Notes under the pieces: generated by a model
What the model was told of the DNA's origin: nothing
Database searches by the model: none
The model's input: the letters and a program-made list of their open reading frames with translations, nothing else
Translations under genes and position numbers: made by a program
NCBI GenBank assembly: GCA_947650285.1
Contig: CANTFL010001335.1
Location: 124,001 to 188,000, forward strand
DNA: 64,000 nt
Direction: 5' to 3'
Source of the DNA: Hyaloperonospora brassicae
Taxonomy: Eukaryota; Oomycota; Peronosporomycetes; Peronosporales; Peronosporaceae
In this document: piece after piece, positions 15,803 to 56,400 of the stretch
How the letters are laid out: each line of letters opens with the position of its first letter
Position numbering within the stretch: position 1 is the stretch's first letter

Positions 15803-16072
15803 TGGAAAGCAGTAGCAGCAGATTGCAATGTGCGGATGAAAAGCACAGCGGCAAATGTCCATCAGCAGAGTGGATTTTATCCACTCGTTCAAAACCCTCT
15901 GCTGTTATGTGTCGCACATAACGATACGTGGTCCACTGAAGTCACAAACGACCATCACTCATGCAACGGCAAGTTCAAGTGGGTACAGTTCCTTCTCCCG
16001 CACGTCGCGCAGCCAGTTACTGCGTGTGGCTATTTGCCGCGTAGCCATTACCGAACAACGCGCCAGAGCGTG
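15803..16072. promoter_or_regulatory. Divergent promoter region, Hsp110-TPR and HNH genes
   Basis: 270 bp between opposing starts. The HNH reading frame stays open through it back to an ATG at 15836, but composition turns non-coding upstream of 16073. No defined core element is asserted. Confidence 0.4.
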
Positions 16073-16969
16073 ATGATGCCGGAGACAAGCGCCTCCACGA
16101 CGTCTCAGCGTCTCGTGTCGCTGCTCGAAACTGTTGCAAACGGCGGCGCGACGGTCGAGGAGCTCGAGTACACGGCCGAGCTCCTTATTGCTACTTCAGA
16201 AGACAACAACGAACCAGCTGGTTCCGACCGAGAGACGCTCGTGGCGGCTCTGGTTGAGGTCCTGGAGGTCGTCGAGTTTCTCGAGACAGCGCAGTCATTG
16301 GCTGTTGCAGACGAAGCTGCGAGTGTTCTGCGAGGCGAGGCACGGAACAGTGACGGGGACCGGGAGAGTCACTCGAGCGAGGGAGTCCACTCGCGCACCA
16401 AGCAACTTGCGGCACAATATGCGATCGGAAAAGACTGTCTCGCGGTGCTGGAAGAGGACAATGCGTGGCATCCAGCGCGGATTCGGAAGCACATTCGTGC
16501 GAGTGACAGTGACTGGGATAGAGAGACCGAGAGTGGAGACGAGGAGCAACTGATGCAGCTGGAAGTGGAGTTTCTCGAGTTTGGCAAGAGGCAGATTGTC
16601 TGCGAGACGGACGTGGTGCTGGACGAGAACGTGGCAGATCGAGAGGAAGTGGGCGACAAGAACGGACTCTGTGCCATGTGCGAACGTCCGATGAACTTGA
16701 CTGCTCATCATGTCATTCCACGGGTTACGCACGCAAAGTATTTGCGAAAAGGGTACACAAAAGAGTTCCTGAACACGTGCATTATGATCTGTCGTCAGTG
16801 TCATAGCAAGATCCACTCGGTCGAGGACAATGCGACGCTTGCACGCGAGTATCACACGCTCGAAAAGATCATGCAGCATCCACAGATCGTTGCGTGGGTT
16901 GCGTACGCACGGAAGCAAAAGGCTCGCATCAGGCCTCAGAAGCAAGCGAAGTGGTTGGGGAGGAGGTGA
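16073..16969 (+). CDS. Tudor-like plus HNH nuclease domain protein
   Basis: 298 aa from ATG 16073 (16076 is an equal alternative; the frame is open back to 15836). Residues about 115-185 resemble a Tudor/SMN fold: YAIGKDCLAVLEEDNAWHPA and VEFLEFGKRQIV. The C-terminal HNH domain has Cys200-x2-Cys203, then TAHHVIPR with His212/His213, and CRQCHSKIH with Cys240, Cys243, His244 and His248. This is a complete zinc-binding beta-beta-alpha-metal nuclease set. The N-terminus is acidic and helical. A chromatin or RNA-linked nuclease is a guess; only the domains are seen. Confidence 0.8.
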   Translation: MMPETSASTTSQRLVSLLETVANGGATVEELEYTAELLIATSEDNNEPAGSDRETLVAALVEVLEVVEFLETAQSLAVADEAASVLRGEARNSDGDRESHSSEGVHSRTKQLAAQYAIGKDCLAVLEEDNAWHPARIRKHIRASDSDWDRETESGDEEQLMQLEVEFLEFGKRQIVCETDVVLDENVADREEVGDKNGLCAMCERPMNLTAHHVIPRVTHAKYLRKGYTKEFLNTCIMICRQCHSKIHSVEDNATLAREYHTLEKIMQHPQIVAWVAYARKQKARIRPQKQAKWLGRR

Positions 16970-17787
16970 GCGTGCGGGACGCAGATGTGTATCAAGTACG
17001 AGCGCGACGCGTCTTTCTGCTCGTTGTATAGTCGTGTAATCTGACTACGAGGCTGTTGACGCACAAGACAAAAGAGCTCGGCATCTTGGGTGGGATACAG
17101 TACCGATCGTGTGCATGCCGTCGGCTGACGATAGAGAGCGTAGGAATGCCGTTTGCGATGTCAACAAGCAGTGCTAACGCCGTTGTAAGGCGGTGTAGAG
17201 GCTGGTAGACTAGCGCAACCGCGTGAGTCGCATGCAAGCTAATCGAACGCACGACGTGGCGCTGTAAGGTGTACCTGCGCGAGGGCTACCGCTACTCGGA
17301 TGGTACTGCGTTCCAATTATGTCAATGGGCGACACAAAAAGCGACTAGCGATACGGTGGCAGCAGCACCAAAGATGAGCCACCCAATCATCGGGCCGGTC
17401 ATTGCGCGGATGTAGCAAGTTTGACGAAAACACACTGTTCGAATGATCAAATTGACGTTAGTACACATGTCCATACGAAACTTTTATTTGCACAAACTAT
17501 TTACGAATATGACCTCTGGAAACAGCATGATGCGTAGCTTGGGACACGCTACTCATTAGTTGAATAGGCCACGATGCATCCGACCACCACTCTGTTGGAA
17601 TAGGTTAGGACAGGCGGTGGATGTAATTGGACTTTCCAGAAAGGTCTAGCGGCGTAGTGGAACAGCTGTCAGATTTCGGCGTGGATGTATGGGCAACGGT
17701 TGCACGCAGTAACGAAATCCAAGTAGAGGCGGAGAAGAAGGCAGTGTGGAAAGCATGGCTAGGAGCAAGTAGAAGTTACAGCAGATG
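16970..17787. other. Spacer between the gene island and the Gypsy element
   Basis: About 800 bp with no recognised gene. A 54-codon open stretch at 17627-17787 (VEQLSDFGVDVWATVARS, EAEKKAVWKAWLGASRS) reads like protein and runs straight into the LTR. It may be a gene or retroelement fragment truncated by the insertion. Confidence 0.4.
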
Positions 17788-18180
17788 TGTAACGGGGCAG
17801 CTCGTTACAGGAAGTGTCACTTTAAAAGAAAGTGACAACAAAGAATATTAAGTGAGTATTCTTTGAACAATATCACCGATAATGGTGATATTGGTGAAGC
17901 GACCAAAGGGTCTGCTCATTGGTTGATATCGTGATGATATCAACCCACCAATAGCCGCAGGACGCGCGCAATGAGTGGTGACGAGACGTCACCATACACT
18001 CAGTTATATTAGCATAATTAAGTTGAGTCAAACAGAGAGACACTAGCAAAAAGACTTAATTATATTAATATAACAGTTTTACTTTCTCTTTATCCTACGC
18101 TTCCTCGTTCGCCTCGTGTACGTCTGTCGGGGCACCCGAAACCCTTGCGTTAAGTTCACGCAAGGGTGTGCCCCGTTACA
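17788..18180 (+). repeat. 5' LTR of the Gypsy element
   Basis: 393 bp. It begins TGTAACGGGGCA and ends TGCCCCGTTACA, a 12-bp inverted pair at the LTR ends. Inside are 9-10 bp palindromes at 17839-17865, 17869-17892, 17922-17944 and 18141-18167. It should carry promoter and polyadenylation signals; none is asserted. A TGGTAGCACTTTG-type primer-binding candidate starts at 18183. Confidence 0.97.
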
Positions 18181-18313
18181 CCTGGTAGCACTTTGTAGTC
18201 CTTCCAAGGACCACAACATCCAACATGAACATGTTGGATGATGAAGAGACCTTTCACGCCACGCGTGAAGGGTTTACCCATTCGAGTGACATCGAATGGG
18301 TGCGGTAGAACGA

Positions 18314-19377
18314 ATGAGTTCTACCGTAGGCGAGTTCGCCATTAGCGCCATGTTGGAGTCTCTAGACAGAGACCAACAACATGCCGCTATAGCCAAGTTC
18401 ATCAAACGTGAACTTGTCGCCGAAAGGGAGAAAGTAGCCTTGCTTCACCAGCAAGGCTCTTAACAGGCCGAGCAGTTGAGAGAACTCGGTGCTCAACAGA
18501 CAGAGCTGTTGAGACAGCAGCAATTCCATGCTGCTGTGGGCGGGACGGCACATGCGCGTCTTCCCGAGGTCATGAAGTTTGGCATCTCCAAGTACAGTGG
18601 AGTCCCGGAGGACTCCCTGTTACTGTGGTTTGTCGAACTCGACAGAGCCTTAAGGGCTCGTCGCGTCGAAGATGAGCAAATGAAACTCACATTTGCTCAG
18701 ACCCACTTGGCAGGGCGTGCCAAAACTTGGTCCCTGGGACTCGAGAGTAGCGACCCAAATGTGTTTAGGTCGCTAGATGACTTCAAGTCCCGGCTCAGAC
18801 AAACGTTTGAGCCGCCACGAGCTGAGTTCTGGGCTCGCTCAGAGCTCCTGAATTCAAGCAGGGTAAGCGTGATGTGCACGCTTACGCACAACATATACGA
18901 CTCCTAGCGAGTAGTATAACTGCTAACCCAGTTCCTGAACACACGTCGATTACGGTGTTCTTGCAAGGGCTCGCAGAAGGGCCCGTCAGGAGCCACCTGT
19001 TCCGCCTTGAGCTGAATACGCTTGAAGAAGCGATATCAGCCGCGGAACAGGAAGACTTTAGCATGATACAGGCTCATGCTAGCTCAAACTCTTACCGTCC
19101 ACCAAGACGACAAGAGATCGAAGGTCCAGAACCAATGGACCTCTGCTATGTTGAGAGCGAGAGACCTCGCTCTTCAAACAACAAGCGATCGCAGAGGTGC
19201 AATCGCTTTCAGAAGTTAGGGCAATTCGCATACGAGTGTAGTGCTCCACGCCCAGTACCAAACAGTACTGAGCGAAATGGACGACCATTTGCCAGAAAGG
19301 GCAATGGGCGTGGGTCCAGCGCTGTTGCGAAGCCGCAACAGCGAGACGGACCATCAAAAAATGGTCGGGGTCAGTAG
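18314..19377 (+). pseudogene. Gypsy gag, broken
   Basis: Starts at ATG 18314 (18350 is a second in-frame Met). A TAA at 18461-18463 interrupts the frame, which then continues to about 18860 with a retrotransposon gag core (PEDSLLLWFVELDRALRAR, LAGRAKTWSLGL). The sequence then shifts frame and continues to 19377 (HAYAQHIRLLASSI). The zinc knuckle near 19197-19240 reads CNRFQKLGQFAYEC, where a CCHC knuckle would have Cys and His at the F and Q positions, so metal binding is lost. A basic Arg/Gly-rich tail ends the protein. Gag normally forms the particle and binds the genomic RNA. Confidence 0.88.
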
Positions 19378-19427
19378 GGGCGGAGCGCCCTACTGATCCA
19401 GCAACCTCAAGAGAATTTGCAAATCTC

Positions 19428-21584
19428 TTGACGAAAGTTGCTCCAGATACACAATCATTGTGTGTCTCTGCACCTGGTGATGACGTTTCGCTCATCACCT
19501 TGAAGCTGGAAGCGACAAATGATTTGTCGCTTCGTGCCCTAGTAGACTGTGGGGCGTCGAACAACTTTGTTCGACGCCAGTCACTAGAGGGTCGTAGGCT
19601 CAAGTTCGTTGAGCGCGACATTCCCCTCACAAGGATGACGGTGCGCCTTGCAACAGGCGCATCGATTACCGTTAAGAAACGTGTAGTAGAAGTCCACTAC
19701 ACGTTGAAGGGCGAACAGTACGATGATGACTTCATCGTACTAGATCTGGATGACAAATTTGATGTCATCCTGGGATTACCTTGGCTCAGAAAGTACGAGC
19801 CAAGGGTGAGCTGGAAGCATCGATCCGTGAAGATGCCTGCCACTTGTTCATCAGATGGCCATCTGATGAACATCTTGGAGCGTCCACAAGCGTGTGGATG
19901 TTCTGCGAGTGAGTGCGATGGCCTCACTTGCGGTTCGGTCGTTAGCACGACTGCACAAGATCACAGTGTAGTTGATCACTACACTGTGGAGCAAGCTCCC
20001 GGCGGCTGTACAGAAGTACAGGCTGCGCCGAAGGTCCACCACTCGAATAAGTCGAGTGGACCGGGACATGGATGCATGCCTAGCGGGCAGCATCTTAGAA
20101 GTGAGAAACCTGTTGCCTTCAAAGGGCAACATGGAAATCCTAGGTCGACTGGAGAGTCGACCGTAGAGGATCGGTCCCTGACTGTGGTTGCACAGCCACA
20201 GTCAGAAGACGTCGAGGGAATAAGTCCCCACGTACTTGAGGAAGGAATTCCTCAAGAGTCACTTGCTGAGGGATCAGGCCTTCAGCAACCTGTGGAAAGA
20301 AGTTCCCAGGAAGTAACCGAGACGTTCAACGTCTCGGTTAATGACGGATCAAGCGTGGGCGCTTATACGCTTGACCTGATTGTGCGTCCGAAGTTAACTT
20401 CGGAGATAACTCAGTTGCCAGCGCTAGAACCGAAACGGTTCTTGCGTGATCTGCGTAGTGGCAAAGTCAAGCAGATCTGCATACTCGTCCCAGAGGATGA
20501 GTATGTGGCCGATATTCGGTCGGCCACAGTATTTGCTGAGAACGAACGGGTTCTCAGCAGCTCATCGATGGACGAAAGTGTCCTCGATGAGAAGACTCGG
20601 ATTGAGCGATACGCGTCCCAATCCTGGGAGTCGCTTCAGGCAAATCCTTTGTATAAGGATTTGATCGAATTCAGGGATGTGTTCCCTGAATCAGTACCTT
20701 GCGAGTTGCCTGAGGACAAAGGCACTCGACACGAGATCGAGCTCAAACCGGGCTCGAAGTACTGTGTCATGAAGCAGTGGCCACTGCCTCGTGAACAAGT
20801 ACTAGCAATCGACAAGTTCTTTGCCGATCGCTTAGAAGCGGGCCATGTGAGGAAATCAACATCCCCTCACAGCTCTCCGACCTTCTGTGTGCGAAAGGCC
20901 ACAGGAGAGTGGCGGATAGTGCACGCATTCAACAAATTGAATGCTGCAACGGTACCGGCTCAGACGCCGATACCGAGGAAGGACGTAATCATAGATGGTA
21001 TGTCAAAGAGTACCATCTTTTCGTCCATGGATCTGATGGATGGGTTCTATCAGATCCTCATGCGTGAACGGGACATCCCGTTCACGGCAGTGAGTACCCT
21101 CAGCGGGATGCTGTGGGAGTGGCTAGTTATGCCACAGGGGATGAGCAATGCCCCTGCAACATTCAACAGATGTGTCACAAATCTGTTGAGACCGGTGAGA
21201 GACTTCTCACCGAGTTACTTCGACAATGTGTTCGTCCATAGCCGGGCTATGGACGGAAAGACGGACGTTGAAGTTCACAGAACTCACGTTCGTCAGGTTC
21301 TTCAACTTATGCGCAAGCATAAGTTGTACGCCAACCTCAAGAAGTGTATATTCGCGGCTAACGAAATACCACTTCTTGGGTGCATCGTGGGTAAACATGG
21401 CGTACGCCCTGATCCCAAAAAGATCGAGGCGATCACCGACTGGCCAGTGCCAGTCGATGTCAAGGGACTGAGGAAATTCCTTGGTCTAGCGGCGTACTTG
21501 CACAAGTCCTCGCAACTATGCCGAGATGACTGTTCATCTTTCTTGATTGCTCAAGAAAAATGTCAAGTGGTCATGGAACGATGA
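19428..21584 (+). pseudogene. Gypsy pol: protease and reverse transcriptase, catalytic Asp lost
   Basis: An open stretch of 718 codons. The aspartic protease site is LVDCGASNN, with Asp at 19545. After a low-complexity linker, RT begins near 20730 (HEIELKPGSKYC), with SSPTFCVRKATGEWRIV, FSSMDLMDGFYQIL and MPQGMSNAPATFNR. The YxDD box at 21216-21227 reads YFDN, so the second metal-binding Asp is Asn and the enzyme should be inactive. The tail goes out of frame at about 21510, and the true continuation lies in another frame from about 21547. Inverted repeats are densest in this part. Confidence 0.93.
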
Positions 21585-22555
21585 GTGCCAGCGTTCCTTT
21601 GAGGGTATCAAGCAAAGCTTTATGCAATCGCCGATCTTGGCAATTGCAGATCAGGACAGACCATTTCATGTGGTATGTGACGCCATCGATTTTGCAATCG
21701 GCTGTGCGTTTATGCAGTTCGATGCAGATGGCGCGGAGCGCGTCATCTGTTATCAGTCGCGTCAGCTGCAAGAAGCTGAGCGTAATTACCCAGTGCATGA
21801 CAAGGAGCTCCTTGCCATGAAGTACGCACTGGCTAAGTTTCGCGTCTATCTCTTGGGAGATAGACCGTTTGCTGTCTATACGGACCATGCGTCATTACGC
21901 ACGGCCGAAACAGCCCACACCTCTCGCAAAGAAATGGCGAGGTGACTGTCTTTCTTCGCGGAGTACTACTTCTCCGTGGAGAATAAACCAGGACGACTCA
22001 ATGTCGTCGCTGATGCGCTTTCGCGCCGGCCCGATTTCGAGCCGGACGCACAATAAAACAGTGAGGATAAGCCCACTGTTGCGACACTGTCATTCAGTGT
22101 CCCGTCGTCAAGTTTACTTGACGACGTGCGAAAGGCATACGCGGAAGATAAGTATCTTCTGCGATTGATGGATCATCTGGTGAATCCATCCAGTAAATCC
22201 ATGAGGGATTTACCGGCTTTGCACCGATCCTCCTCGGATCGGTATAGTACACGCAACGGATTGCTGTACTATACAGCTGTTGCCGACGACACGCCTCGTT
22301 TCGTCGTACCCGCTCATCATGATTTGCGTTTACGCATCATGTATGAGTGTCACGATGCCCCAACAGGCGGCCATCGTGGTAGAGAAAAGACTCACCTCAC
22401 CGTAAGTCGTGACTTTTACTGGCCACGCCAGTATAAGTCACTATCAGTTTGTCTGCAAGTACGTACGTGCTTGCGAGGTTTGTCAACGGGTGAAGCCTAG
22501 TCCTTCATCCCTTGCGCCATTGCAGCCTCTGCCTGTTCCGACAGAGTGATGGCAG
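21514..22555 (+). pseudogene. Gypsy pol: RNase H and integrase zinc finger, broken
   Basis: RNase H is intact in sequence (VVCDA, DKELLAMKYAL, YTDHASLR), but the frame carries TGA at 21943-21945, where family members have Trp, and TAA at 22054-22056. The integrase HHCC finger follows (VPAHHDLRLRIMYECH, GGHRGREKTH). A frameshift near 22440 comes before its cysteines (RACEVCQRV), and another TGA lies just before the integrase core. An in-frame TGA also lies just before 21547. None of these stops is at a plausible programmed site. Confidence 0.88.
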
Positions 22556-23770
22556 TCCGTTTCAATGGACTTCGTCTTCGGTTTTCCCGAAGACGCTCAC
22601 AATAATAATGGTATTCTTGTGTTTGTTGACCGATTCAGTAAGATAGTGCATCTTGCTGCTGTCCATGAGTCGATCAAGGCTCAAGGTTGTGCTCGTGTCT
22701 TTCTCGACACGGTCTTTAGACTCCACGGGTTACCCCGTGAACTCGTATCCGACCGTGACCCTCGGTTCACGGCGGCATTTTGGCAAACCGTGTTCCGCAC
22801 ATTGGGAACACGATTGAAGATGTCTACTTCTGACCATCCCGAAACAGATGGTCAGACGGAACGTGCGAACCGTGTTCTCAAAGAGATACTTCGAGGATTT
22901 GTCCACTCGATTTCGAGTTGGAGCGAATTCCTACCCATGGTGGAATTCGCCACCAATAATTCGTTGCATGCTTCCACACAGCACACATCGTTTTACGTGA
23001 ATGGCTTACGCCATCCACGTGTCCCCGCCCTTTTAGAGTGTGACTCTTGGATAAGGGGGGGAGGGACTCGCTCGAGCAAAAACCGTTTTGGCTCTTGCTC
23101 ATCACGTGTCGACGCTAACGTCGTCACGTATGATGCTGATGTCGATCAAGTCGACACCGATGAAGAAGATCACCTTAATAATAGCGATGACGCTATTATT
23201 GACTCGGATGATGATGACGATGCTGGTATATTCAGCATCGTCAACGATTATGCCATCGAGGAAGAAGACAACCTCGTTGAAGAAGAGAGCAATCTCTTAG
23301 CAGTGCGCACGAAGCGCACTGAAAGACAAAACAAAGAGTCGGCAGAGAACTTCCTGCTGACTCGAGAAGCGGTAGTCCGTTTCGTTCAGGACTCCATCGC
23401 AAATGCGGTGGACCGTCAGAAACGGAACGCAGACAAGAATGGAAGAGCAAATGTTCTTTCATTTAAGGTTAACGACCTAGTACTACTGTCTACGGTAAAC
23501 TTACCTGGGCATGCAGTCACTAGTGTCGGCAGTAGTAAACTACTGCCGAAGTACATTGGGCCATTTCGAGTGTTGCATCGCAAGGGCAATGCATACACAC
23601 TCGAATTGCCACGTAAGATGCGCACGCATCCTACGTTTTACGTGGGGAGGCTCAGCCCGTACTGTAAGTACGAGCCTTCTTCTTCCGATGAAGATAGCCC
23701 CACGTTCAAGAACATCCATCAAGTTCTTGTGTTCGCGCTCCAGACGATCCGTCTGATCGCGCAGATATGA
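22556..23770 (+). pseudogene. Gypsy integrase core and C-terminal region
   Basis: Open from the Met at 22565 to 23770. The DDE triad is present: MDFVFGF (first Asp), SDRDPRFTA (second), and Glu in TDGQTERANR. An unusual acidic insert at about 23105-23300 (DTDEEDHLNN, DSDDDDDAG, EEEDNLVEEE) separates the core from a GPY-like segment (LLPKYIGPFRVL, YTLELPRKMRTHPTFYVGRL). Integrase would insert the cDNA; this domain alone looks intact. Confidence 0.9.
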
Positions 23771-25258
23771 TACCTCGGAACTCAACCGAGATATCTCCCC
23801 GCGAGCTGTCGCCAGCTTGCCGAATAGGGAGCGGACATCCCACTCGACCTGAAGCTGCGCTGTGGCATAATCGGCGCGATACCTCGCCCGATCAGCCTCG
23901 TGATCCTTGCGGTTCTTCCGCACGGTATCAGTCAAAGCGTAGCGCCGGTCGCGCTCGTGCTTCAAGTCATCGCGCAATTCATCGATTGCGCGATCCATAT
24001 CTTAAGGTTCGAGATGGTGAGCCGAATAATCTGGAGGAGGTCTTTCCTCCTCCACCACATTCTTTGGTGGATGCTCACGATGATCAGCGCTTCCTAGTGG
24101 AGCGTATCTTGAATCACCGTGACGATTCAGGATCAAGGACGAGCTACCTCGTCCAGTGGCGGGGGTGTCCACCCTCTTGGAACAGCTAGGAGCCCCGCTA
24201 TCAGCTGTTGATGGATGTTGAAGGTATCGTCCGCCAGTATGACGAGACCCATCCGATGAGTCCTCGGGTACATCGGTAAACACGCGCTTTTGGCGCTTGT
24301 AGACGGATTGCAAGTTTGCAATCGCGTCACGCATCTCCTCCGAGATGTGTGCCCTTCCCCAGGGCGAACTTAGGGAATACACGTCCCTATGTGCACGCTG
24401 CGAGTTGTCAACACAACTCGCACAAGGGTCTCCCCATGTGAGGCAAGGAATGCCTGCCTCACTCGACAAACAGTGCAACCGATACCTGGCACCGGTTGGC
24501 GTTCGCTTTTCGAACCTGAGGCGTGTCGCCTCAAGTTTCTTGATCCACCCTTCTCGTCCAAAATTCTTTACGTTTTGGACGAACGCGTTCCACGCAGCCA
24601 AAAGCGAGGCTTTGTCACGCTTTTGGTTGCTGTTGTACCATCGATGTCTAAGGTAGACATCGAGATAAAAGTCTTCCTCAGCGCGAAAGTTGCTCGCGCT
24701 GGGACTCAAGCCGTGAAGCTCAGTCGCATCGAATAAGGGTATTCGATGGTGTTGGCTTGTCTCGTGAGACAAGCTATTGATGAGCCGTTCGGTCAAACGC
24801 CACGGCTTCAGCTCATCACGCTTCACGGTGTTACCTTTGTTGGTACCACGGCTCCCAGATTGAAGACGGCTCACGCCATCATCATCACGCTCGTGCGAAG
24901 ACGCACGAGCCGGCGGTGGTAAGGAATAATATTCCTCATTACCCTGATCATCGCCATCACTCCCGAACAGACTGTGATGCAACTCACGAGTCCGTTCGTT
25001 CGGCAGTGGCCTTGGCGAATACTGAGGCGTCGCCGGTGAGCGAGACGCCTCTGGAGCATCGCCCGAGTCAGACACGTCTGACTCGCCAGAGTAGATGACC
25101 TCAATGTCGGGGTCATCATGCGCACGCGGTGAGGTGCCGCGTGCATTTGCAGCACCTGTTGCTGCAGGCAAAGAAAGAGCAGCAGACGACGAATCGTCTG
25201 CCGCAGAGGCTGGCACAGGCACAGACTCTGTGTGCCTTGAGTCACCCCGCATAGACAT
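23540..25258 (-). CDS. Antisense ORF inside the Gypsy element, split by one stop
   Basis: Opposite in direction to gag-pol. It opens at Met 25258 and runs 418 codons to TAA at 24002-24004. Two codons later the same frame continues from Met 23998 for 152 codons, so one frame of about 570 residues is cut by a single stop. The N-terminal third is Ser/Pro/Asp-rich. The middle (NFRAEEDFYLDVYLRHRW, NVKNFGREGWIKKLEATR) is structured-looking, with a Cys cluster in AGIPCLTWGDPCASC. The C-terminal part is a coiled coil (DRLEREHKNLMDVL). I know no function. It overlaps the chromodomain. The degraded copy at about 60,950-61,740 retains matching sequence in the same orientation, so the ORF belongs to the family. 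Confidence 0.7.
24061..24260 (+). pseudogene. Chromodomain of Gypsy pol, interrupted by a stop
   Basis: Reads DQRFLVERILNHRDD, SYLVQWRGCPPSWNS, then TAG at 24187-24189 where the family has Trp, then EPRYQLLMDVEG and YDETHPM. Chromodomains target chromoviruses to marked chromatin. This segment overlaps the 3' part of the antisense ORF on the other strand. Confidence 0.85.
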
Positions 25259-25388
25259 GTTAACTATGCGAGATCAGGTTGAGTTATGAACGGAACTGAC
25301 CCAACAAGTGCTCCCTGTCCCAATGGCGCCCAACGGGTGGCCGCCATAATTTTCGATAGTCACACGGTGACTATCAGTTAGGGGGTGA

Positions 25389-25782
25389 TGTAACGGGGCA
25401 GCCCGTTACATGGAAGTGTCACTTTAAAAGAAAGTGACAACAAAGAATATTAAGTGAGTATTCTTTGAACAATATCACCGATAATGGTGATATTGGTGAA
25501 GCGACCAAAGGGTCTGCTCATTGGTTGATATCGTGATGATATCAACCCACCAATAGCCGCAGGACGCGCGCAATGAGTGGTGACGAGACGTCACCATACA
25601 CTCAGTTATATTAGCATAATTAAGTTGAGTCAAACAGAGAGACACTAGCAAAAAGACTTAATTATATTAATATAACAGTTTTACTTTCTCTTTATCCTAC
25701 GCTTCCTTGTTCGCCTCGTGTACGTCTGTCGGGGCACCCAAAAGCCTTGCGTTAAGTTCACGCAAGGGTGTGCCCCGTTACA
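25389..25782 (+). repeat. 3' LTR of the Gypsy element
   Basis: 394 bp, matching the 5' LTR except for four substitutions and one T insertion. The purine run TTAGGGGGTGATG just before it is a candidate polypurine tract. One substitution pair breaks an inverted repeat that is perfect in the 5' LTR (18141-18167). Confidence 0.97.
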
Positions 25783-27600
25783 ACAGGGCTATCTCTTTCA
25801 CGCGGCGGAACAAAGTTATCAAGCGGGGGAACTGCTCAGTCTAAATGCGGCTGGATGCTACCAGCAGATTGCATTGCACAAGACGCAGGCAGGCAGCCCA
25901 GCACCGCTCAATTTGCGATACAGCAATATCCATTATTCGGTATTTGTTCACTTCCGACACCCACCACCATTTGGCCGTGAAGGAGCTTATTTAAATCTAT
26001 ATGGATTACAGCGACGCCATGTCACCATGTAAGACGTGAGTATGACCGAAGATATGGAGGAAACACCTGGTGAGTCAATCGTGGTAGACGCATATTCCTT
26101 ACAGAAGCTCCAGAATAGAGACCAGCTGGACCAAAAGACTGCGGTTTATTCCAGCATTCCCATGAGTAAGCTACGCGTGACATTCCGATAGCTACCGTTC
26201 CCACAAATCCCTATATCCACCATCGAACAGATCTTTGGCTCCCTCGGACCTCAGCGCTTTACGCTCTCCTCAACTTTCTCACTGCGACGGATCCGACCAA
26301 GGTATAGTCGACCAGCAGCGCCTTGCAAGCGTCGATATGACGAATATCTCAACCATCGATGTCGTACAGCTGAAACGACAACATCACATAGCACCATGCG
26401 TCCTGCATCAGTGGAAATCTCTCGTGAACGAGAACAAGGGGCTACTGATCCTTGACGATCGTCTTGAGTAGAAACCAGCGATGCCTGACCTGGTTGGAGA
26501 CAACGCAACGTTACAGCCGTCGCTACAACGTCTTATGCGCTCCACGAATTACTCGGACGGACCTCGATGACCGCACAAGTTCACCGATCACCACCTCTAT
26601 AGGTATCGACCAAAAGCACCACGTTGTTATGAAGACGATACAGGGCCACGCAGGGGCCTGCCAGACACCTAGAATGACGAATTAGTGGTCCCACACCTTC
26701 AAAAAAGGCGGCGTCATCCAGGACTGCAATCGCTCGACTGGATATGCCGTTGCTAATCAAAGGAACCTGGCAGGATATGTGGCTATCGTTGGGAACGATA
26801 TGGCTGGCGAATACTCAAGATAATGTTTCTACCCTCCAGAGTACATCGGCGGTATGGGAGCGAGCAGAATCCTCTGACCTGTCAAGTCGATGACTCTGCT
26901 TCAAGCATTTCCCTACCAGGTTTCTCTATTGGATGCCCTCGATGATGAGGTGCTCGTGTCATGGACATCTGCCTGGCGTTGCGACTGCCTGTTTCAGGGT
27001 CTCGATACATACCACAAGCAGGTATCCGACAGCGGAACCCAAGTGTGACTCGAAGCCTGGCGATCCTGTACGACAGGGGAGACAGGTAGTCAAACCTTGG
27101 CCCCCTTGTCGACAATACGGATGGCTAGATTACATTGCGCGAGTGTGACTGTGACAAGGACGATCTTTGCGGCTATGCGACACCCGCAACAAACGCCTGT
27201 TTGCACGAGACGCCGTATGTGCGATTTTGCACAACGACGGCATTAAGGCGCTACCGGTAGAACGACGGCGAAGTCCTGGACCGGATAAAGAGACATCTTT
27301 CAGCTTTAGTTATCAGCGCGAATCAATGACAAAGCATCTGAGCATCAAGCCATGAGAAGATCTGGGATGTGGTCCATTCATTCTTCGAGCAGTCGCTCGC
27401 TCAAGGATCCGTTCAACGGAATCAACACTACTAACGTCTCCGCAGTACGCGACGGGTACCTTCTGCCGCCTTTGATAGGGTGACAGCCAAACTCCTTACA
27501 GAAAAACTTTCCGTGAAGCACCTATTTCCTCCCACGAACACACCCGATACCCACCGCGGCCACCGACCAGATACCAAATTATGTCACTTACAAAATTTTG
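25783..27600. other. Unassigned decayed sequence 3' of the Gypsy element
   Basis: No intact gene. Short open stretches such as LLSLNAAGCYQQIALHKTQ near 25840 look like decayed protein-coding sequence, possibly the 5' part of the LINE listed next. Stops and frame changes are frequent. Confidence 0.45.
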
Positions 27601-31100: not shown

Positions 31101-32150
31101 CGCATATGCGACTACATGGGTTTCTGTGTACCTTCCTCTAATAAACAACAACATTCACGTATATGAAGCGTTAACTTGCCGGTCTTTTTGAAGGGCGAAA
31201 CGACATTTGGCCTTATCTCTACTAGCTGCGATCGCCATACTAAAACACAAAGATAACTGGCATGGAGGAGGGTACTTTCCAGTTGTCGCAGTCGCCGGCG
31301 CAGCTATGGAAGCATAGCCATGCACTCACGGAGTTGAAAATATCAATTTGCTACAGGATAGCAACTCATCAATTAAATCTGTATTATCCGGGGCGAGAGC
31401 TAGATGCCACATGCAAGTGGCGTCATGCCTGCTGCGGGCAACATGAATACATTTTTCTAATCATCATTTGGGACTGCGTGGGAGCGAAACTGAGCTGGAT
31501 TTATATAGTATACCACTTATTGCGATTACTAGCAACATAAAATCAACCCCATCGGTACAAACAAGTGGCTTTATCGATACAGGCCTTCATACCCCTTATG
31601 TAGGCAAGGGCGGACATCAAGCGCCGCTTTCCCGATCACGCTGACACCGTCGGACATACACATAAACATATATAGTAAATTGCTGTCTCGGTCTGATTGA
31701 CCACGATCTGGGTTCAAAGGAATCGAAGTGTCCACAATCAGGAAAGCATGACGCCGGAGCAGGTTGTCGCCAAAGTGCGGTACGTACTTTCACAGCAACT
31801 ACGCGCTGTAGCGATCAAGGCACAACGGCATGACAGAGATCGAGATGATAGAGCCTTCTCTTAACCAGCGACGGCATTGTTCATTCGTACCGTCGCACAT
31901 CGGACAATGGAACTAGACATCCTTTCTTGGCGACCCGATTTACCTTCCGGGATCCTAGAGAGGTTGAGGGTCTTTCAGAAATTTTGTACGCCTTAAGGGT
32001 AAATAAACAGTATGTTTCTCAATTTTCTACACCATCAGTGCTACACATGCGCAACGAGTGGTGAGCATTGTGTCAACATGCATGCGTTTGGTTCAGTGTC
32101 GTTTAAGTAATGTTTTAGGTGTTTGTCTGATACATGTCATCCCTACCACT
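31101..32150. other. AT-rich intergenic sequence
   Basis: No recognised gene or element. The short open frame at 31262-31540 (92 codons) has no family signature. Confidence 0.5.
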
Positions 32151-32179: not shown

Positions 32180-35126
32180 ATAATATATACCCATTTCACC
32201 TGCCTAAGGAATTATATTCAAAAATATTTTGTTTTGAGGGTGTTTTTGAAGGCCGCTTCACGAATTTCTCAATATATAAGATGATGTCAACTTGATCAAC
32301 TACCAATTGCTGCTAGGCGCGTGCAATGAGTGACGAGCGTGATTCAATATATAACAGAGATGTTTGGTATGTCTAAAGTATACAAAGATGGTTAACTTAA
32401 TGGAATACCAACATTGACATCAGCTCTACTTTCCCCTACTCTGAGAATTCTTTGCTCACCTCTTTCCCTCACGCTTTTTCAATGCTCACGCGTAGTGACG
32501 TACGAGATCACGCCTTCTCGTATTTAATTTTGGGCTTGTTAGCAATATGATAAGGAGCGTGCTTCGTTACACCTGGTACAATTTCGTGGTCCATTGAACA
32601 CCGCGATCATTCTAATCAACACAAAATGTTGGATATTAAAAAGGTTTTTACGTCACGCGTAAAGTAATAACCACTTATCTGACATCAAATGAAGAGCGAT
32701 AGAACAAATAAAATCTTCTGTTGGCGAGGCCTGCCGTAAGTGCCTTGTTAAAGTATCTTGACAGAGGACAACAACATGCCGCTGTAGCCAAGTTCATACA
32801 AACGGCATTTGTCGCCGAAAGGTAAAAGGTGGCCTTGCTTCACCAGCAACGCTCTTATAGTCCGCGCAGTTGAATATATCGGTGGTCAGCAGACATTTAT
32901 TTCAGACAGCAGCAATTTATTGCTGCTGTGGGCAGGCCGACGAACACGCGTCGTCCCGATAATTTGAAGCTTGATAAATCAAAGGACAAGGGAGTCAATA
33001 AATACTCTCTGTTGAGAAAGTTTTGTCGAATTTAAAGACTCAATAAGGGCCCGTCGTATCGTCGACGACGAAATGCAAGTCGCATCGGCCTGGTAAAACT
33101 TGGCTGGACGTGAGAAGACTTGGGCCTTAGAGCTCAATCTCCACGATCCATATCCGTGTGGATCGGTGAAAGTCGATAAATTCTGGATCAGACAACGATA
33201 TAACCCATCTCGAGCCGAGTCCCGGATTTGTGCTTATGTTTTTCAACTCAGACAGGGTTCACTCGACGTGCACGCTAACGTGCAGCACATTCGATACCTT
33301 TCAGATTGCATTACTGTCAACTCGATAAGTAAACAAACCCAAAATTACGGTGTTTAGATCCTTGCGAATGATTTTGTATAAACTTACCTGTTCTGGGTAT
33401 TTGTATTTGATCGAACAAGCGAAATAAGGGGAAGAACAGGAATTCCCTAGCTAGAGACAGGTCCAAAGTTGTTCGTCTACCGATCGTCCTTCGAGACGAA
33501 AGGAACCCGGGTATTCGGATTTGATAAATATCTATTACATTAAATCGAGCGTACCCTTTATAAGGGGTAAGAGAGATTGCGAATGTGAAAACGTAGTCAG
33601 AAGACAGGGCACTACGCCTATAAATCAAATTAGAGTGCCTTTAAACTAGTGCTAAGTGTGCAAGTACGTAACGAACTTCCTGGGTCCAACTAGGACCTGA
33701 AACGCGGGTCCAACGTTATAGCGAAATTGCAAAATCTAGGCAAGCCACAATAAACGGTCAAACTTAGTATGGGCGAAGCACCCTGATGATCCAGCCCTGT
33801 AAAAAGAAAATTTGTAGGTCTATTCGTGAAGGCTTCTCCAAACATACACGTAATGTGGGTTACTTATCCTGAGAATTATAATTTTTTATCATCTTAAATC
33901 GAGTCGACTAGGATACGAGTCGACTTGGGCACGAGTCGACTAGGGTACGAAGTGACAATTGTGACTTCGTACCTAGTCGACTTTGAGGCGTTGAGCGATT
34001 TTATTCGTCCCATATATAGAAGGATCGTATGCTCAAGTTCATCGAGCGCAAAATCACAAAAATAATGATGATGGGGTGCTTTCAAACAGGTGCACCCGTA
34101 ACACTGACAAACAAAAAATGCGAACACAGTACGCAAACTTAGATGAGAAGTACAGCTTCCTGGATTTTTGACCAGATCGAAACCTGTAATCTTAATAAAC
34201 AAATACTAGGCGGTAAGGCTTTCCTTCTGAGAAAACGCCTTAAATTAATCGTTAAGGTCCATAACATTCAATTACAATTATTACAAGATGTCTACTGTAT
34301 CATTATGGACTTGCATGACAAATTTAAAGCCATCCACGGTCCACCATGGCTAAAATAAGACGCGCATAAATCAAATGACAGTATCGATCCGTGAAGATAC
34401 CTTCCACTTATTCATCATGTGACCATTTACTACATGTATTCGGACTTTTACGAGAGTTTGAATGATCTACAAGTGGATTTGATGGGCATGTGGATAGTCC
34501 GATTACACGACTGCACAAGACTAGAGTGTAGTTGATCAATCCATGGTGGAGTAAGCTGCTGGTAAATGTGTTGAAGCTGTCGAAGGTTTACCACTCAAAA
34601 AGCCCAAGTAAACAGAATATGAATGTTAGTCGAGTAGGCAGCATCAAAGGAAGAAACTCCTGTTGCCCAGAAGCGGTCATAGGGTATATCTAGATCGGCT
34701 GATAATTCGACCGTACATAAAATGGACGTGGGCGATACAATATTTGCGCGACACTAAGTGAATCATAACCCATCAACATAAGGGAATAAGGGTTTTACAA
34801 ACAAGCGATACACAGAATGCCTTGGTTAAGGACCTTATAATTGTAATGACTTTCGCAATCGATCTGATAGCCCCAAGAAAATTTAGCTCGAGAACGCTCA
34901 GTTGCCAATGCTTATTCCGAAATGCTTCTCAAAGATATTATTAGTAGCATAGTCAAGCAGATACGCGTACTCGTCGCAGAGGACGAGTACATTGACAATT
35001 TTAGTGTCGGTATTATAATTTGTAAGAGCAAACGGATTTAGATCAGCTCATCAATGACCGAAAGTTTTCTCGATGAGAATTTTTCCATTTAAGTTTACAT
35101 TTATTTATCGTAAGGATCCTGAAAGC
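32180..35126 (+). mobile_element. Old Gypsy copy 2, left part (LTR, gag, protease relics)
   Basis: Diverged copy of the same family as 17788-25782. LTR-like sequence at about 32270-32380 matches the segment around 17940. The LTR/leader junction is recognisable at about 32560-32600 (CGTTACACCTGGTA). Gag traces run 32700-33350, and protease-region traces 34140-34420 (DLHDKFKAI.GPPWL). All frames are broken. The inverted repeats seen in the young copy are mostly no longer symmetrical. Confidence 0.75.
33900..33985. repeat. Three 16-bp tandem repeats running into an inverted repeat
   Basis: Units at 33900-33915, 33916-33931 and 33932-33947 share CGAGTCGACT. The last unit and its flank pair with 33967-33985 as an inverted repeat of about 19 bp arms with one extra G. 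It sits inside Gypsy copy 2. Confidence 0.75.
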
Positions 35127-37869: not shown

Positions 37870-40800
37870 GATTGAAGTCAAATTCTTTACCACAACTTTG
37901 GACGATATTAAGGGTACATTTTCTACATTTGCCGTACGAGTCTCCAAACGGGAAAAAACGTCACGAAATTGATCTAAAACCCGGTTCGAAGTACTGTGTC
38001 AGGAAGCAGTGTCCAATGCCTCGTAAACAGGTATAAGCGAATGAAACGATCTTGGCGATCGTCTATCATCGGGCCATGTGATAGAGTCAACCTCCACACA
38101 TAATTCTCCGACCTTTTGTAAGTATAATGCCACAGGGGAATGACGGCTAGTGCACGTATATAAATGGTTAAATGCTGCAACATTACCGGCTAAATCACTG
38201 ATACCGAGTATGGACGTTATCATAAACGGTACGTCGAAGGGTATCATCTTTTTGTCCATGGATCTGACTGATCGATTCGATCGTATTCTAACTCGTAAAC
38301 AAGACACCCGATTAGGCATTAAGAACAGATATTTATATTAGTATAGATGCTAGCTATTCAATGGGCTTAGAGATGCCACTGCCGCATTACCCCTAGACGT
38401 GTCACAAATATGTTTAGATCGGTGCGAAATTTTGCACCGGGCCACTTTGACGATGTGATTGACCATATCCAGGTCATCGAATGAAATCCGGACGTGAAAG
38501 TTCATCGACTTTACATCCTCAAAATCATTACACTCATGCGTGAGCATAAGTTGTACGCCAACCTCAAAATGTATTTAAGCGGCCAGCAAAATACCACTGT
38601 TTGGATACATCGTCGACATAAACGGCGTAAGATCGGATCCGGAAGAGATCAAGGCGATCACCGACTGGTCCGTGCTAGATAATTTCAAGGGACTATAACG
38701 TTCTTTACCCCAGTGGTGTAATTGTACCAGTACTCATGATATTACGCCACGAAAACCATTCATCTTTCTCGTTTCCTTAATAAACAACCAGATTTGGTCG
38801 TGGATTGATGCGTGTCAGAACTGCTTCGAAAGTAAAAACAATAGATTTTACAATCGTCACCGTTGACGATTGCATACCAATACAGGCCATATTTTGTGGA
38901 AGTCCTGCCAGTTATTTTGCAATCGGCTGCGCGTTGATGCAGTACGACGCAGACCGTGCGAAACCTGTCGTCTCCCACCAGACGTCAGCTCTAACGGGCG
39001 AAAAGTAACTATCCCGTGCATAGGTAAAAATAAATTTCTATGAAGTATGCACTGACCACGTTTCGCGTCTTTCTACTAGGAGATCAACTGTTCATCGTAT
39101 CCACGTACCTTCATTCACAACGCACGGCCGTCCGCACATCTCGAAAATAATGGCTACATGGCTGTCGTCCATTTTTGCAGTAGAACTTCTTCTTTGGATA
39201 AAAACAGGACGACAAAACGTCGTCGTTGCTGCTTTTTAAGCCGGACGGTTTAAGCCTGCATGGGCGTTCAAAAATGAAGGTTGTCCCACTGTTGTAGTGC
39301 TAATTAGTCATAACTCCGTCATCAAATTTTTTGATAGCGTAAAAAATACGTACGCACAAGATAAATGACTTGTGCGGACAATCGAAGTACCGAATAATCC
39401 ATTCCGGTAAGCTTTTTAAATCTTGCGGGCGGCGTATCGATTTTTATCTTATTGATACCAAACCGGCGATGGCAGCTGTAGTAAAGAGTATTCGCCGGCG
39501 ACGTGAATCATCTCTTCGTGCCCACGCATAATGACCTGCGTCAGGTAATTAATAAAAGAGTGCCATGATTCACCACTTATTGGTGCATCGTTATCGCTTG
39601 TAAGACGTCTCAAAATAGTAGTAAATAATAACGGCCCGTTACTGAAAGTTTTTTTGGGCACGTACATTCGTGTTTACAAGGTTTGTCAACGCATGAAGTC
39701 GACTCCTTCGTCGTTTGCACCAATGCAGCCCTCAAAGGTTCCGACAGAGTGCTGCAATACGGATATATAGGATTCCTTCTTTGATCTTGTGTAGATGAGC
39801 GCGAAAATACATGTATTCTAGTTTTTGCAGGTCGTATCAGTACGATAGTATATATCGTTGCACTTATGAAGTCTTTTTAGGGCTATGCTTGTACATTTAT
39901 TGACACAGTCTTTTGACGCCATGGATCACCATGTGGGATTCTAAGGCTCGTGTCCATTAGACTTCCGCAATCCACGGTCTAGAGATCCATTTTTAATATC
40001 TCACAACACGCTTGGCAATTTCAATTTTTATTTATTCAAAATAAAAGTTCGAATCAACGCACAAATCGCGTCTCGGAGAAAGCAAAATACGAAAGTCCAT
40101 TCGTTTAATTCCTAAGCTAATATTGCCAATGGCGTAGTATGCGAAGTAAAGAAGTCGGTGCATCCACATCTCATACATCGGTCTTCATAATTTACTTACG
40201 CCATCCGCGTGCCCACGCTAAACGAAGTCTGACTCTATACGGAGAGCTAAAGACTCGTTCGAGCGCCGGCCAGCTTGAATACCTATCATCGCGCATTGAC
40301 GTCACAGTCATTGCAGATACTGTCGATGTCGATCAATGTAAATTTAATGAAAATTTGAAATTGAATCAATATAGATGTCAATATTGCTGGTAACGATGCT
40401 ATAAAAATACATCATTGTTAATGATGTCAATATTGAAAGCGATGATGTTCTAGCCAATAAAGCCATGGACATTACTGCACTGCACTCACGTGTACTGCAG
40501 ACATATAACTTGTCATCGACTGTATGAATTCTAACCTTAGAAACAATGATCCTTTTCGTTCCAATTCTTTCGTGAAAGAGATAGATATGCAGAAAAGAAA
40601 CGCTGACAATAGTAGAAGGTCAAATATATATATATATATATATATATTGTATCTTAGTAATTTGTGATACTGCTACAGATACTTTTACCGAAACGCGTAG
40701 AAAGGTACGGTAATGCTATATTCTATTGCGTATGTATATCGGTATCTTTCATGTGCTGCTTCGTCTACGCAAATCCAAACTTTTGACATTTATCACAGGA

Positions 40801-53469: not shown

Positions 53470-56400
53470 TCGGCAGCAAAATGGGGCCGATGACAATAAT
53501 CTCAAATTATCATATTTACCACTATTTACCTCACTGAGAACATATTGTAGCGATATTACCGTCGAATGTAATACTTGGCAATGTTCAACTCATTCGATGA
53601 TACGGACCATTTTACCAAAGAACTTATATACCAATCGCTGCTAGACGCGCGCACTGGGTGGTAAGCGGGCAGTTCCGATTTCGCGTTTGTTGTTCAATAT
53701 AGCTTGAGTAAAATCGAAAAGGGATTTGTTAAACGTCATAGACTACACCGAACACAGTTCTACTTTTTCCTTCTTTCACGCGTGTTCGATTTGAAAATTG
53801 AGCCTTCTTAACACGTGCAACATGAGTGAGGACTCGAGTCTCCTTTTACACTGCGGTCAGTTTAAGTAGCTTGTACTGTGTCGGTAACAGCATATATATC
53901 CCATTTCACCTAAAAGCATTTCGTGGTCCGTTCAACGACCAAGGGCCTTCTTTCCAGCGTGTTCATGTTAGCAATAATAAAGGTTTGTTTGTATAAGTAT
54001 GTATTAGCTTGATGGGTCTGCTTTTTTGTGCATCGAATGGAATGTAAGCGAACGTATATGCTCGACCGTTTGTGAACGTGCCATCAACGCTATGCTGTTC
54101 AATCTGAAACCAGACGAGCAACATGCAGCAATTGCTAGTTTTATCTAGCGTGAACTTCATGAGGCGCACGCGGGATTGACTTTGATTTACAAGCAAGGTT
54201 CTCAACCGTCAGAGCTGTAAAGAGAAACATGTGCTCAACAGTTTCGATTGTACATGGTCTTGTCGAATCAGACGACGCCATCAGGATCATCGTATCATCG
54301 ACAAAGATAAAATGTCACACTAATCCAGCCAAACTTGACTGAAAGAGCCAAACATTGGGCGTTAAGACTTAAGCTGCACGACATATATGCGCTTAAGTCG
54401 TTGAGGACCTTCAAGATCGGCTCGGATAGATATTTGAACCCCAAAGGCTTAAACACTAAGCTTCATCCGAGCTCCTAAAAATCTGGCTGGGCAAGCGTGA
54501 CGTGCACGTTTACGCTCAGCACACCCGTCAACTTGCGAGTTGCATAAAGGCTGCCCGATTCATGAGTACATGTTTATTTTGGTGTCCATGCAGGGTCTTG
54601 CGAACGTTCATCGATTTCTATAACGCTGGATACTCTAGAACAAGCGATATCCGTGGCGGAATAGAAAACCATTATCCTGGTACAGATTAATGTCAACTAT
54701 GGTGATATTGTTCCCTTAGACGACAGTAGGTTACTGGTCCAGAACCGATGGAACTCTGTCACGTGGAGAGCAAGAAGACCCGCTCTCCAGAATACAAAGA
54801 TTGCAAAAATGAAATCATTGTAAAAAGATAGGGCGATACGAATATCGATGTAGTTCTCCGAATATTGTCTTATGTGCGACCGTTTCACGTTAATGGTAGA
54901 CAGCCGAAAATGGCCCGAGAGTGGAGCCGACACTGTTGCGATATCTCAACAGAGGCGGACCGTAAGAAAACGGTGGGATTTAGCACGGTGGATGGTCTTG
55001 CTGATCCGCAACGTCTAGTAAATCTGCAAACCTCTTGAAGAAGGTTGCTCCTAACCCACAGTCACTGTTTTACTGCCTCCGATGATGAGGTCTACCTTAT
55101 CACCTTACAAATTGAAGTGTCGAAAGACATGTCAATTTGAGCCCTAGCTATCTGCAGGGCGTCAAAGACCACCATTACATACTATTATTAACTTGGTAAT
55201 CGTCATCTCAAGCTCGTTGGGATCGAGAACCCACGATTGAGGCTGAAATTGCACCTTGCAAAAGGCGCATTCGAATCAGTGCAAAAACGTTCAGTTGTAA
55301 CTCACTACACGTTAGAAGATAAACAGTGAGATGATGATTTCCATTGTACTGAATTTGGATGCCAAACTCGATGTCATCCTTTGTCTACCGTGGCCACGAA
55401 GGTATGAGTCACGGATCAGCTGACAGCATCGGTATGTAAATATTCCTGCCAATTTCTTATCAGATGGTCATTTCATGTATTTATTAGCTCCTTCACAAGC
55501 GTGTGTAGGCTCTACGAGTGAGACGTAGTGGAGAACGTTCGCTAGCACAAATGCACAAGATCTCATTTATTTAACACTATAATGCGTAGCAAGCTTCCGG
55601 AAGATGAGTGAAAACGCATGCAGCGTCGAAGGTCCGTCACTTAAATAAGTCGAGCGGAACAGTACATACAAGCGTACCTAACAAGAATCATCCAAGAAAA
55701 TTTAAACCGGTTGTCCAAAAGAGGTATTACGCTTAACTAGGCTGAATGGGGGGTTGACCGTAAATTGGCTGGATATGGTAGAGTCCCCACATCCAGAAGA
55801 GGCTGGGCGAATGATTTCCTCGCAGCATAAAGAATAAGTTCTCTAGAACTAAACGAGACACTGAATATTTATGCTGAACGACATAATAAGAGTTTCTGGT
55901 GTACACAGTTGATCTGATAGCACCTCTGGAGTCAACTTCGGAGATACGTCAGCTACCAAAGCTCAAATCGAATAGGTTGTGCGAGACATGCGTAGTGACG
56001 AAGTCAAGTAGATATGCGAGCTCGTCGCAGGGGAAGAGTACGCTGCCAATATTACGTCAGCATTAGTATTTTCTAAGAAAGAACGGGTTGTTTTAAAGCC
56101 CATTGATGGATGAACGTCTTCTTTTTGAGATGACTCGAATTGAGCGGCACACGTCTCAATCTAAAGAGTCTTAGAAGGCAAATTCCTTTTCCAAAGGTTT
56201 GAACAAATGCAAGGATACACTTCCTGGATCCATGCCGTACGATTTGCCTAAGGGCAGAGGACCTTCACGAGATCGAAATGAAAGCCCCGTCTCGAGTGTA
56301 CTATTTGATGAAGAAGTAGACACTTCCATACGGACCATATATTGCGATCGACGAGTTCTTTGTCGATCAATTGACATCGGGTCATGTGATGATGTCAACC

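What the first reader, a model, noticed from the sequence alone, without database searches (positions are those of the whole stretch)
17788..25782. A Gypsy retrotransposon tiled end to end with short hyphenated palindromes
Throughout the 8-kb element almost every 25-45 bp carries an inverted repeat with 6-14 bp perfect arms and a spacer of 0-11 bp. In 19,441-19,880 I count ten with arms of 7 or more, covering over half the bases. Random expectation for arms of 7 and spacers 0-10 is about 440 x 11 / 4^7 = 0.3. Six have arms of 9 or more, against an expectation near 0.02. The pattern crosses LTRs, gag, protease, RT, integrase, acidic insert and antisense ORF, so it is a property of the whole element and overlays protein coding. 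It implies that codon choice is bent to keep hairpins. Possible causes: selection for a dense RNA or ssDNA hairpin chain (packaging, dsRNA decoy, silencing evasion); quasipalindrome-templated copying during reverse transcription that perfects imperfect hairpins; or binding sites for a dimeric protein.
Basis: seen in the sequence. Interest (0 to 1): 0.96.

Follow-up and report, generated by a model that had tools for sequence, protein, structure and literature searches.

The report
Retrotransposon armoured with selected hairpins
A jumping gene of the downy mildew Hyaloperonospora brassicae carries more than a hundred short self-complementary hairpins from end to end, right through its protein-coding parts; they are likely kept by natural selection and would help the element's RNA and DNA strands fold out of reach of the host's gene silencing.

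Summary
The 8-kb Ty3/Gypsy element (17788-25782) has 118 inverted repeats (arms >=7, spacer <=12) against 5.4 in dinucleotide shuffles; they begin and stop at its ends. Copies from the same genome (H. brassicae) show how it is kept. Private mutations hit stems, loops and the rest alike, but variants present in two or more copies are three to four times rarer in stems than in loops. Between subfamilies, third codon positions change more slowly in stems, and compensatory double changes occur. A lineage 52% identical in protein is also hairpin-rich, at mostly different places; two distant Gypsy pieces and host genes are not. This favours selection for hairpin density and speaks against copy-and-perfect mutation and protein-binding sites. 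G-T mismatches are removed as strongly as A-C and both strands fold equally well, so pairing probably matters in both polarities (small numbers). Folding excess is 39-49% in four copies, against 4-16% for structured RNA viruses in one published table. The function, silencing evasion, is inferred.

The parts
17788..25782 (+). Ty3/Gypsy-type LTR retrotransposon copy filled with short inverted repeats from end to end
17788..18180 (+). 5' LTR (TGTAACGGGG...CCCGTTACA), itself full of hairpins
   Evidence: LTR-LTR comparison: 6 differences (4 substitutions, 2 indels) in 395 aligned columns
25389..25782 (+). 3' LTR
18874..19377 (+). ORF upstream of protease, gag by position only (no Pfam match); 5 inverted repeats against 0.54 in synonymous shuffles
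19428..21584 (+). Protease-reverse transcriptase ORF (RVP_2, RVT_1); 38 inverted repeats against 2.6 in synonymous shuffles
22565..23770 (+). Integrase ORF (rve just under its cut-off, SH3_Tf2-1); 9 inverted repeats against 1.2
24002..25258 (-). Antisense ORF of 418 aa with 20 database homologues (41-86% identical), two of them named as Hyaloperonospora; 22 inverted repeats against 1.5
19509..19533 (.). Example hairpin, arms 12, spacer 1, inside the protease part of the frame
19553..19578 (.). Example hairpin, arms 12, spacer 2, inside the protease part of the frame
19845..19872 (.).

Best explanation
This Ty3/Gypsy family carries short Watson-Crick hairpins along its whole length that are likely kept by purifying selection on the copies that replicate, and they would work as a position-free structural shield that folds both polarities of the element's RNA or cDNA locally and so would deny the host's RNA silencing long accessible strands. 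Shown by calls: the excess, its limits, its presence in coding sequence, the slower evolution of stems, compensatory changes, equal mutation of stems and loops among private changes, and a second lineage with hairpins at mostly different places. Inferred: that selection rather than a mutational process keeps them (well supported), that both polarities matter (moderately supported), and that silencing or dsRNA surveillance is the pressure (weakly supported, by analogy with structured RNA virus genomes).
For: Excess over dinucleotide and synonymous shuffles. With stems defined in an outgroup subfamily copy (L020) and variation counted in 48 other copies: singletons per column 0.152 stem, 0.154 loop, 0.139 other; variants in two or more copies 0.034, 0.138, 0.068 (shared against single: stem versus loop p=1.6e-6, stem versus other p=3e-4). 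Third codon positions: L022-L073 stem 0.093, loop 0.274, other 0.216; L022-L074 0.057, 0.113, 0.099. Both-changed Watson-Crick pairs: 37 of 934 pairs compared (window copy to L073) against at most 4 by chance. Hairpin centres shared between L075 and L069 (76% aa identity): 4 of L069's 7 against 0.04 expected; between L022 and L075 (52%): only 3 of 27 (0.5 expected, maximum 4 in 500 shifts). Hairpins sit where the protein is less conserved in 5 of 6 comparisons. Wobble: among variants in two or more copies G-T 7, A-C 8, transversion 10, against 36, 37, 45 among singletons. Folding excess: window copy 43.5% sense and 42.1% antisense, L022 48.6% and 52.4%; three host genes -1.9 to 2.1%. No repeated loop sequence among 94 loops' 4- and 5-base loops listed.
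Against: No expression, small-RNA or structure-probing data. Spacing is about random, so this is not an optimised tiling. In the L075-L069 comparison stems are hardly slower (third positions 0.487 against 0.615 in loops and 0.597 elsewhere; first and second positions faster in stems). Other Gypsy pieces of the same genome (L067, L068) do without it, while L066 and the unrelated L065 fold 16% and 14% better than shuffles with few perfect short repeats, so hairpins of this kind are not the only way to be folded. A looser wobble count leans towards sense RNA (G-T 133, A-C 97), the strict one the other way (7 against 15); wobble numbers are small. Antisense transcription is inferred only from the antisense ORF, which covers only the 3' part, is weakly constrained by codon position (0.053, 0.079, 0.091), and had no blastp match to the antisense ORF of L075. 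In Phytophthora, inverted repeats were reported as potent sources of small RNA (PMC3804510, passages seen), though probably far longer ones (my inference).
Confidence: 0.45

Rival explanations
1. Selection for folding of the sense genomic RNA alone, as in genome-scale ordered RNA structure of RNA viruses (packaging, stability or evasion).
For: Very strong folding excess over the whole length; stems mostly 7-10 bp with spacers peaking at 4-5 nt; loops slightly A-rich, 0.305 against 0.251; loose count G-T 133 against A-C 97.
Against: G-T mismatches are no better tolerated than A-C among variants in two or more copies (7:8 against 36:37 and, with stems from L022, 15:15 against 42:49; 16:19 against 44:52) or between subfamilies (122:144 over six directional comparisons that overlap in data); sense and antisense fold equally well; G-U share of predicted pairs is 6-7% in four copies, half that of three host genes.
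Confidence: 0.2
2. Selection on single-stranded cDNA (or extruded DNA) hairpins during reverse transcription or integration, with RNA folding a by-product.
For: Strict Watson-Crick pairing and strand symmetry; LTRs are included.
Against: Nothing here separates it from a two-polarity RNA effect; other Gypsy pieces, whose life cycle should be the same, lack it (L067, L068).
Confidence: 0.2
3. A mutational process: quasipalindromes are copied to perfection by template switching in reverse transcription, with no benefit to the element.
For: Perfect pairing with few imperfect stems, as was argued for nematomorph mitochondrial palindromes (PMC6649704, Discussion read).
Against: Singletons at non-paired positions within three bases of stems become paired at the mutational rate (27 of 81, expected 25.8). 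Unbiased conversion predicts (my inference) equal stem and loop divergence and up to about 20% of pairs changed on both sides; observed 0.113 against 0.228 and 37 of 934, with slower stems also in the LTRs, where no protein constrains. Related lineages have far fewer hairpins.
Confidence: 0.12
4. Dyad-symmetric binding sites for a dimeric protein.
For: Footprints mostly 20-28 bp in the window family and 19-23 in L075.
Against: 108 different arms in 108 hairpins (3' LTR left out); the most shared 6-mer occurs in 3, as in random segments (mean 3.2); loops fast-evolving and without a common sequence.
Confidence: 0.02

Closest known systems
[quoted passage not shown]
   Same: Structure over the whole genome, through coding sequence; folding excess far above the 3% threshold; duplexes reported there as mostly over 8 bp and never over 11, close to the 7-10 bp stems here; found in a subset of viruses and not conserved between genera, as here between lineages.
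   Different: LTR retrotransposon, not an RNA virus; folding excess 39-49% against 4-16% for the transcripts classed as GORS in that paper's table; equal in both strands; no clear G-U preference; some stems of 12-14 bp.
Coding palindromes of Nematomorpha mitochondrial genes (PMC6649704, abstract and Discussion read)
   Same: Numerous perfect inverted repeats inside protein-coding sequence, no excess of imperfect ones, positions that turn over, bias against one codon phase.
   Different: Those are long (up to 284 bp) and in mitochondrial DNA; the authors raise repeat conversion. Here over a hundred arms of 7-14 bp fill one mobile element, and conversion is disfavoured by the copy comparisons.
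Ty3/Gypsy elements with mapped RNA structure, such as yeast Ty3 (PMC11381356, abstract and section 29 read)
   Same: Same element class; structured regions in genomic RNA.
   Different: Ty3, Ty1 and HIV-1 are described there as mosaics of structured and dynamic regions, with stable regions up to 30% (Ty) or about 40% (HIV-1) of the RNA, not as end-to-end hairpins.

Membership tests
Ty3/Gypsy LTR retrotransposon | Two LTRs flanking the element | tested here: met
   17788-18180 and 25389-25782, 6 differences in 395 aligned columns
Ty3/Gypsy LTR retrotransposon | Protease, RT, integrase in the Gypsy order (RT before integrase; order recalled) | tested here: met
   RVP_2 and RVT_1 in 19428-21584, rve (31.9 bits, cut-off 32.6) and SH3_Tf2-1 in 22565-23770
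Ty3/Gypsy LTR retrotransposon | Target-site duplication | tested here: inconclusive
   No 4-5 bp duplication seen by eye at 17783-17787 and 25783-25787
GORS | Folding excess (MFED) over 3% against dinucleotide shuffles | tested here: met
   43.5% in the window copy, 300-base fragments, 15 shuffles each, ViennaRNA
GORS | Structure spread over the whole genome | tested here: met
   2-11 hairpins in every one of 16 500-base bins
GORS | Genome of a positive-strand RNA virus | tested here: not met
   LTR retrotransposon; hence 'works like', not 'is a member'
GORS | Duplexes never over 11 bp (given there as a manuscript in preparation) | tested here: not met
   23 of 299 predicted helices of 7 bp or more are 12-14 bp, none longer, in the window copy (overlapping fragments)
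GORS | Less recognition by host defence | not testable with these tools
   needs experiment
Repeat-conversion palindromes | Arms perfected by templated copying | tested here: not met
   27 of 81 against 25.8 expected; few both-changed pairs

The most novel reading that the evidence does not exclude
A retrotransposon lineage has evolved a whole-genome, strand-symmetric (Watson-Crick only) hairpin armour, overlaid on its protein code and held by purifying selection, and a second lineage carries the same trait with hairpins at mostly different places: a nucleic-acid-level stealth trait two and a half to three times stronger than that of the most structured RNA virus in the published table.
Probability: 0.35. 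Interest if true: 0.95.

Novelty: new variant of a known kind. Interest (0 to 1): 0.85.

Why it matters
Why some RNA genomes are folded from end to end is an open question. Here a retrotransposon with many copies in one genome offers a natural experiment: private changes show the mutation spectrum, variants shared by copies show selection, and lineages poor in hairpins are the control. It gives a selection signal for hairpin density, not for particular structures, and a hint that pairing must work in both polarities, which would point to sense-antisense duplex or cDNA stages rather than to messenger RNA alone.

Tried and rejected
Chance, base composition, codon usage and protein sequence as causes: rejected. 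A motif shared by the hairpins: none. Regular tiling: rejected. Single-pair autocorrelation was too diluted to use. Negative correlation of arm length with arm G+C (a sign of a stability target): weak, rho -0.16, -0.29, -0.20 in three copies and 0.08 in L075. Avoidance of 3-3 codon pairing shows in the window family (L022 11 of 65 hairpins, L012 6 of 47, window PR-RT 5 of 37, L073 6 of 40) but not in L075 (14 of 45). Old relics in the window (64-72% identity) keep 386 of 682 stem pairs, 0.57 against 0.50 expected by independence: uninformative. DNA relatives outside this genome: three scans of viral contigs found none; genome contigs gave one locus, L072, 38% identical, with 8 inverted repeats against 4.7. 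Model of the antisense protein: mean pLDDT 48.9, so no fold search. The stem classes were chosen from the same copies in which variation was counted; one search repeats the count with stems from an outgroup copy to remove that bias.
Full report
1. The observation. I counted perfect inverted repeats (arms >=7, spacer <=12) over the window in 2-kb steps: inside the element 18-33, outside 0-4 except in three steps. The step at 16001 has 8, because the element starts in it; the step at 32001 has 7, where an old relic of the same kind lies; the step at 40001 has 13, in which one search shows an AT repeat. Over 17788-25782 there are 118, against 5.4 +- 2.2 in 50 dinucleotide shuffles. The pattern starts and stops with the element.

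2. Shuffling codons among synonymous positions keeps protein and codon usage: PR-RT ORF 38 observed, 2.6 mean, 7 maximum of 100; integrase 9 against 1.2; antisense ORF 22 against 1.5; the ORF before protease 5 against 0.54. Four host ORFs have 0, 0, 0 and 2; an HNH-domain ORF beside the element has 4 against 1.3. So codon choice is bent towards hairpins.

3. Shape of the hairpins. Spacers peak at 4-5, arms lie at 7-10 and thin out beyond; spans are mostly 20-28 bases, 19-23 in L075. Predicted free energies have nearly the same quartiles in four copies, although the L075 lineage uses shorter, more G+C-rich arms. Spacing is about random. All 108 arms examined are different and share no motif.

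4. Anatomy and host. LTRs at 17788-18180 and 25389-25782, RVP_2 and RVT_1 in 19428-21584, rve (just under cut-off) and SH3_Tf2-1 in 22565-23770, and an antisense ORF at 24002-25258. The open frame around RT in this copy is 770 codons; many other copies have 1339 or more (no mend was attempted). A host Hsp70-like gene in the window is 100% identical to a Hyaloperonospora brassicae protein whose contig has the same length, 363,833 bases, as C808, so the genome is that downy mildew. Copies are many: 132 scored RT matches, a lower bound.

5. Other lineages. Two-kilobase RT pieces from eight other places: L071 33 inverted repeats, L064 15, L069 8, L070 6, L066 3, L067 2, L068 0, L065 1, against 1.2-1.6 in shuffles. 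The protein tree groups the window family with Pythium and Peronospora sequences, and L064/L069/L070 with a Phytophthora sequence. The hairpins of the window family and the L075 lineage (L075 is the longer locus at L064) rarely coincide: 3 of 27 centres, 0.5 expected, maximum 4 in 500 shifts; within the L075 lineage 4 of 7 are shared at 76% aa identity, 0.04 expected. Density is the kept trait; single hairpins turn over, or the trait arose twice.

6. Selection. I took 58 fetched loci (L006-L063), dropped 10 that were the same place twice, set L020 aside as outgroup and added the window copy: 48 copies. With stems defined in L020 alone, singletons per column are nearly equal in stem, loop and other (0.152, 0.154, 0.139), while variants present in two or more copies are 0.034, 0.138 and 0.068. 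With stems defined in L022: 0.045, 0.138, 0.072; in at least 30% of copies: 0.046, 0.140, 0.071. Copies with more private differences have fewer hairpins (rho -0.57). Stems are thus kept in the lineages that replicate and not in resident copies. Third codon positions agree for L022-L073 (stem 0.093, loop 0.274, other 0.216) and L022-L074 (0.057, 0.113, 0.099), but hardly for the more distant L075-L069 (0.487, 0.615, 0.597, with first and second positions faster in stems). Compensatory pairs between the L073 subfamily and the others: 37 of 934, 29 of 969, 35 of 879 and 26 of 950 in four directional comparisons, each against at most 4 by chance; between the close pair window copy and L074, 4 of 971 and 1 of 931, against at most 0.7. 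Most of the first four sets lie in the gag-to-integrase part, although the PR-RT frames aligned by codon (L022-L073) hold only 3. Amino-acid identity to other lineages is lower in both stems and loops than elsewhere in 5 of 6 comparisons, as if hairpins are placed where the protein allows.

7. Against templated perfecting. If hairpins were perfected by copying one arm from the other, new mutations beside stems should turn into pairs too often: 27 of 81 did, 25.8 expected. Conversion without selection would let half of all stem mutations spread to both arms, so up to about 20% of pairs should be changed on both sides (my inference from loop divergence); 4% are. In the LTRs, where no protein constrains, stems still lag behind loops (window copy to L073: 0.108 against 0.308 in the 3' LTR, 0.179 against 0.240 in the 5' LTR and leader) with 3 of 96 pairs both-changed in the 5' LTR and leader and 0 of 68 in the 3' LTR.

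8. Which molecule? Sense RNA should tolerate G-U. Among variants in two or more copies G-T:A-C is 7:8 (singletons 36:37) with stems from L020 and 15:15 (42:49) with stems from L022; with stems from 30% of copies 16:19 (44:52; Fisher p=1). Between subfamilies one-sided changes are 122:144 summed over six directional comparisons that overlap in data. Strict interior mismatches are 7:15; a looser count leans the other way, 133:97. Sense and antisense folding are equal within error. I read this as pairing that matters in both polarities, or in DNA; the numbers are small.

9. How strong. With 300-base fragments and dinucleotide shuffles the sense folding excess is 43.5% (window copy), 48.6% (L022), 43.9% (L073), 39.3% (L074), 16.6% (L075), 16.2% (L066), 14.1% (L065), 6.6% (L069), 4.3% (L067), 1.9% (L068) and -1.9 to 0.1% in three host genes. 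So moderate folding also occurs in retroelements with few perfect short hairpins; the window family is the extreme of the sample. The table in PMC3950689 (passage seen) gives 4.0-16.0% for transcripts classed as GORS, with another folding program and 50 shuffles, so the comparison is rough. That paper also reports duplexes mostly over 8 bp and never over 11.

10. Mechanism. I commit to selection for hairpin density acting on the replicating form in both polarities, most likely because locally folded strands anneal poorly with antisense RNA or small RNAs and stay too short in duplex for dsRNA processing. Steps shown: excess, constraint, compensation, turnover, decay. Inferred: both polarities, silencing as the pressure. 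In Phytophthora, 25/26-nt small RNAs are associated with transposable elements (PMC3804510, passages seen), so the pressure is plausible. Antisense transcription is suggested by the antisense ORF, which has 20 database homologues 41-86% identical, but its codon-position constraint is weak and the L075 antisense ORF did not match it.

11. Novelty. Nine searches of the open-licence library listed no paper, by title and start of abstract, describing such a retrotransposon; only the listed top rows were seen, and most subscription journals are not held. Closest are GORS viruses and nematomorph coding palindromes.

Noticed in passing
window 24002-25258 (-), with 23540-23998 (-) beside it: Antisense ORF with 20 database homologues (41-86% identical; two named as Hyaloperonospora, the other 18 unnamed ENA records); three are 559-574 aa long and show weak coiled-coil matches or none at the C-terminal end, so the window copy looks interrupted. 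One relative is named by a source as a core-binding-domain protein. No confident fold.
   Followed up: partly
window 32559-35079, 37959-39849, 54112-58647: Decayed relics 64-72% identical to the element with 0-2 inverted repeats per aligned piece.
   Followed up: partly
L066 and L065: A related Gypsy lineage and an unrelated retroelement fold 16.2/19.6% and 14.1/10.6% (sense/antisense) better than shuffles although they have few perfect short inverted repeats; structure may be commoner among retroelements of this genome than the hairpin count shows.
   Followed up: no
loops of the hairpins, RT region: Loops carry twice as many variants shared by copies per column (0.138) as sequence outside hairpins (0.068): unusually free, or favoured to change.
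   Followed up: no
window 15830-16969: HNH-domain ORF beside the element with four inverted repeats (three with arms >=8 at 15868-16185), a mild excess over 1.3 in synonymous shuffles.
   Followed up: no
window 17783-17787 and 25783-25787: No target-site duplication seen by eye.
   Followed up: no
whole genome: The pattern TGTAACGGGnnnnnCCCGTTACA, drawn from the LTR ends of this family, occurs at 207 places; the backward-read control occurs at none.
   Followed up: no
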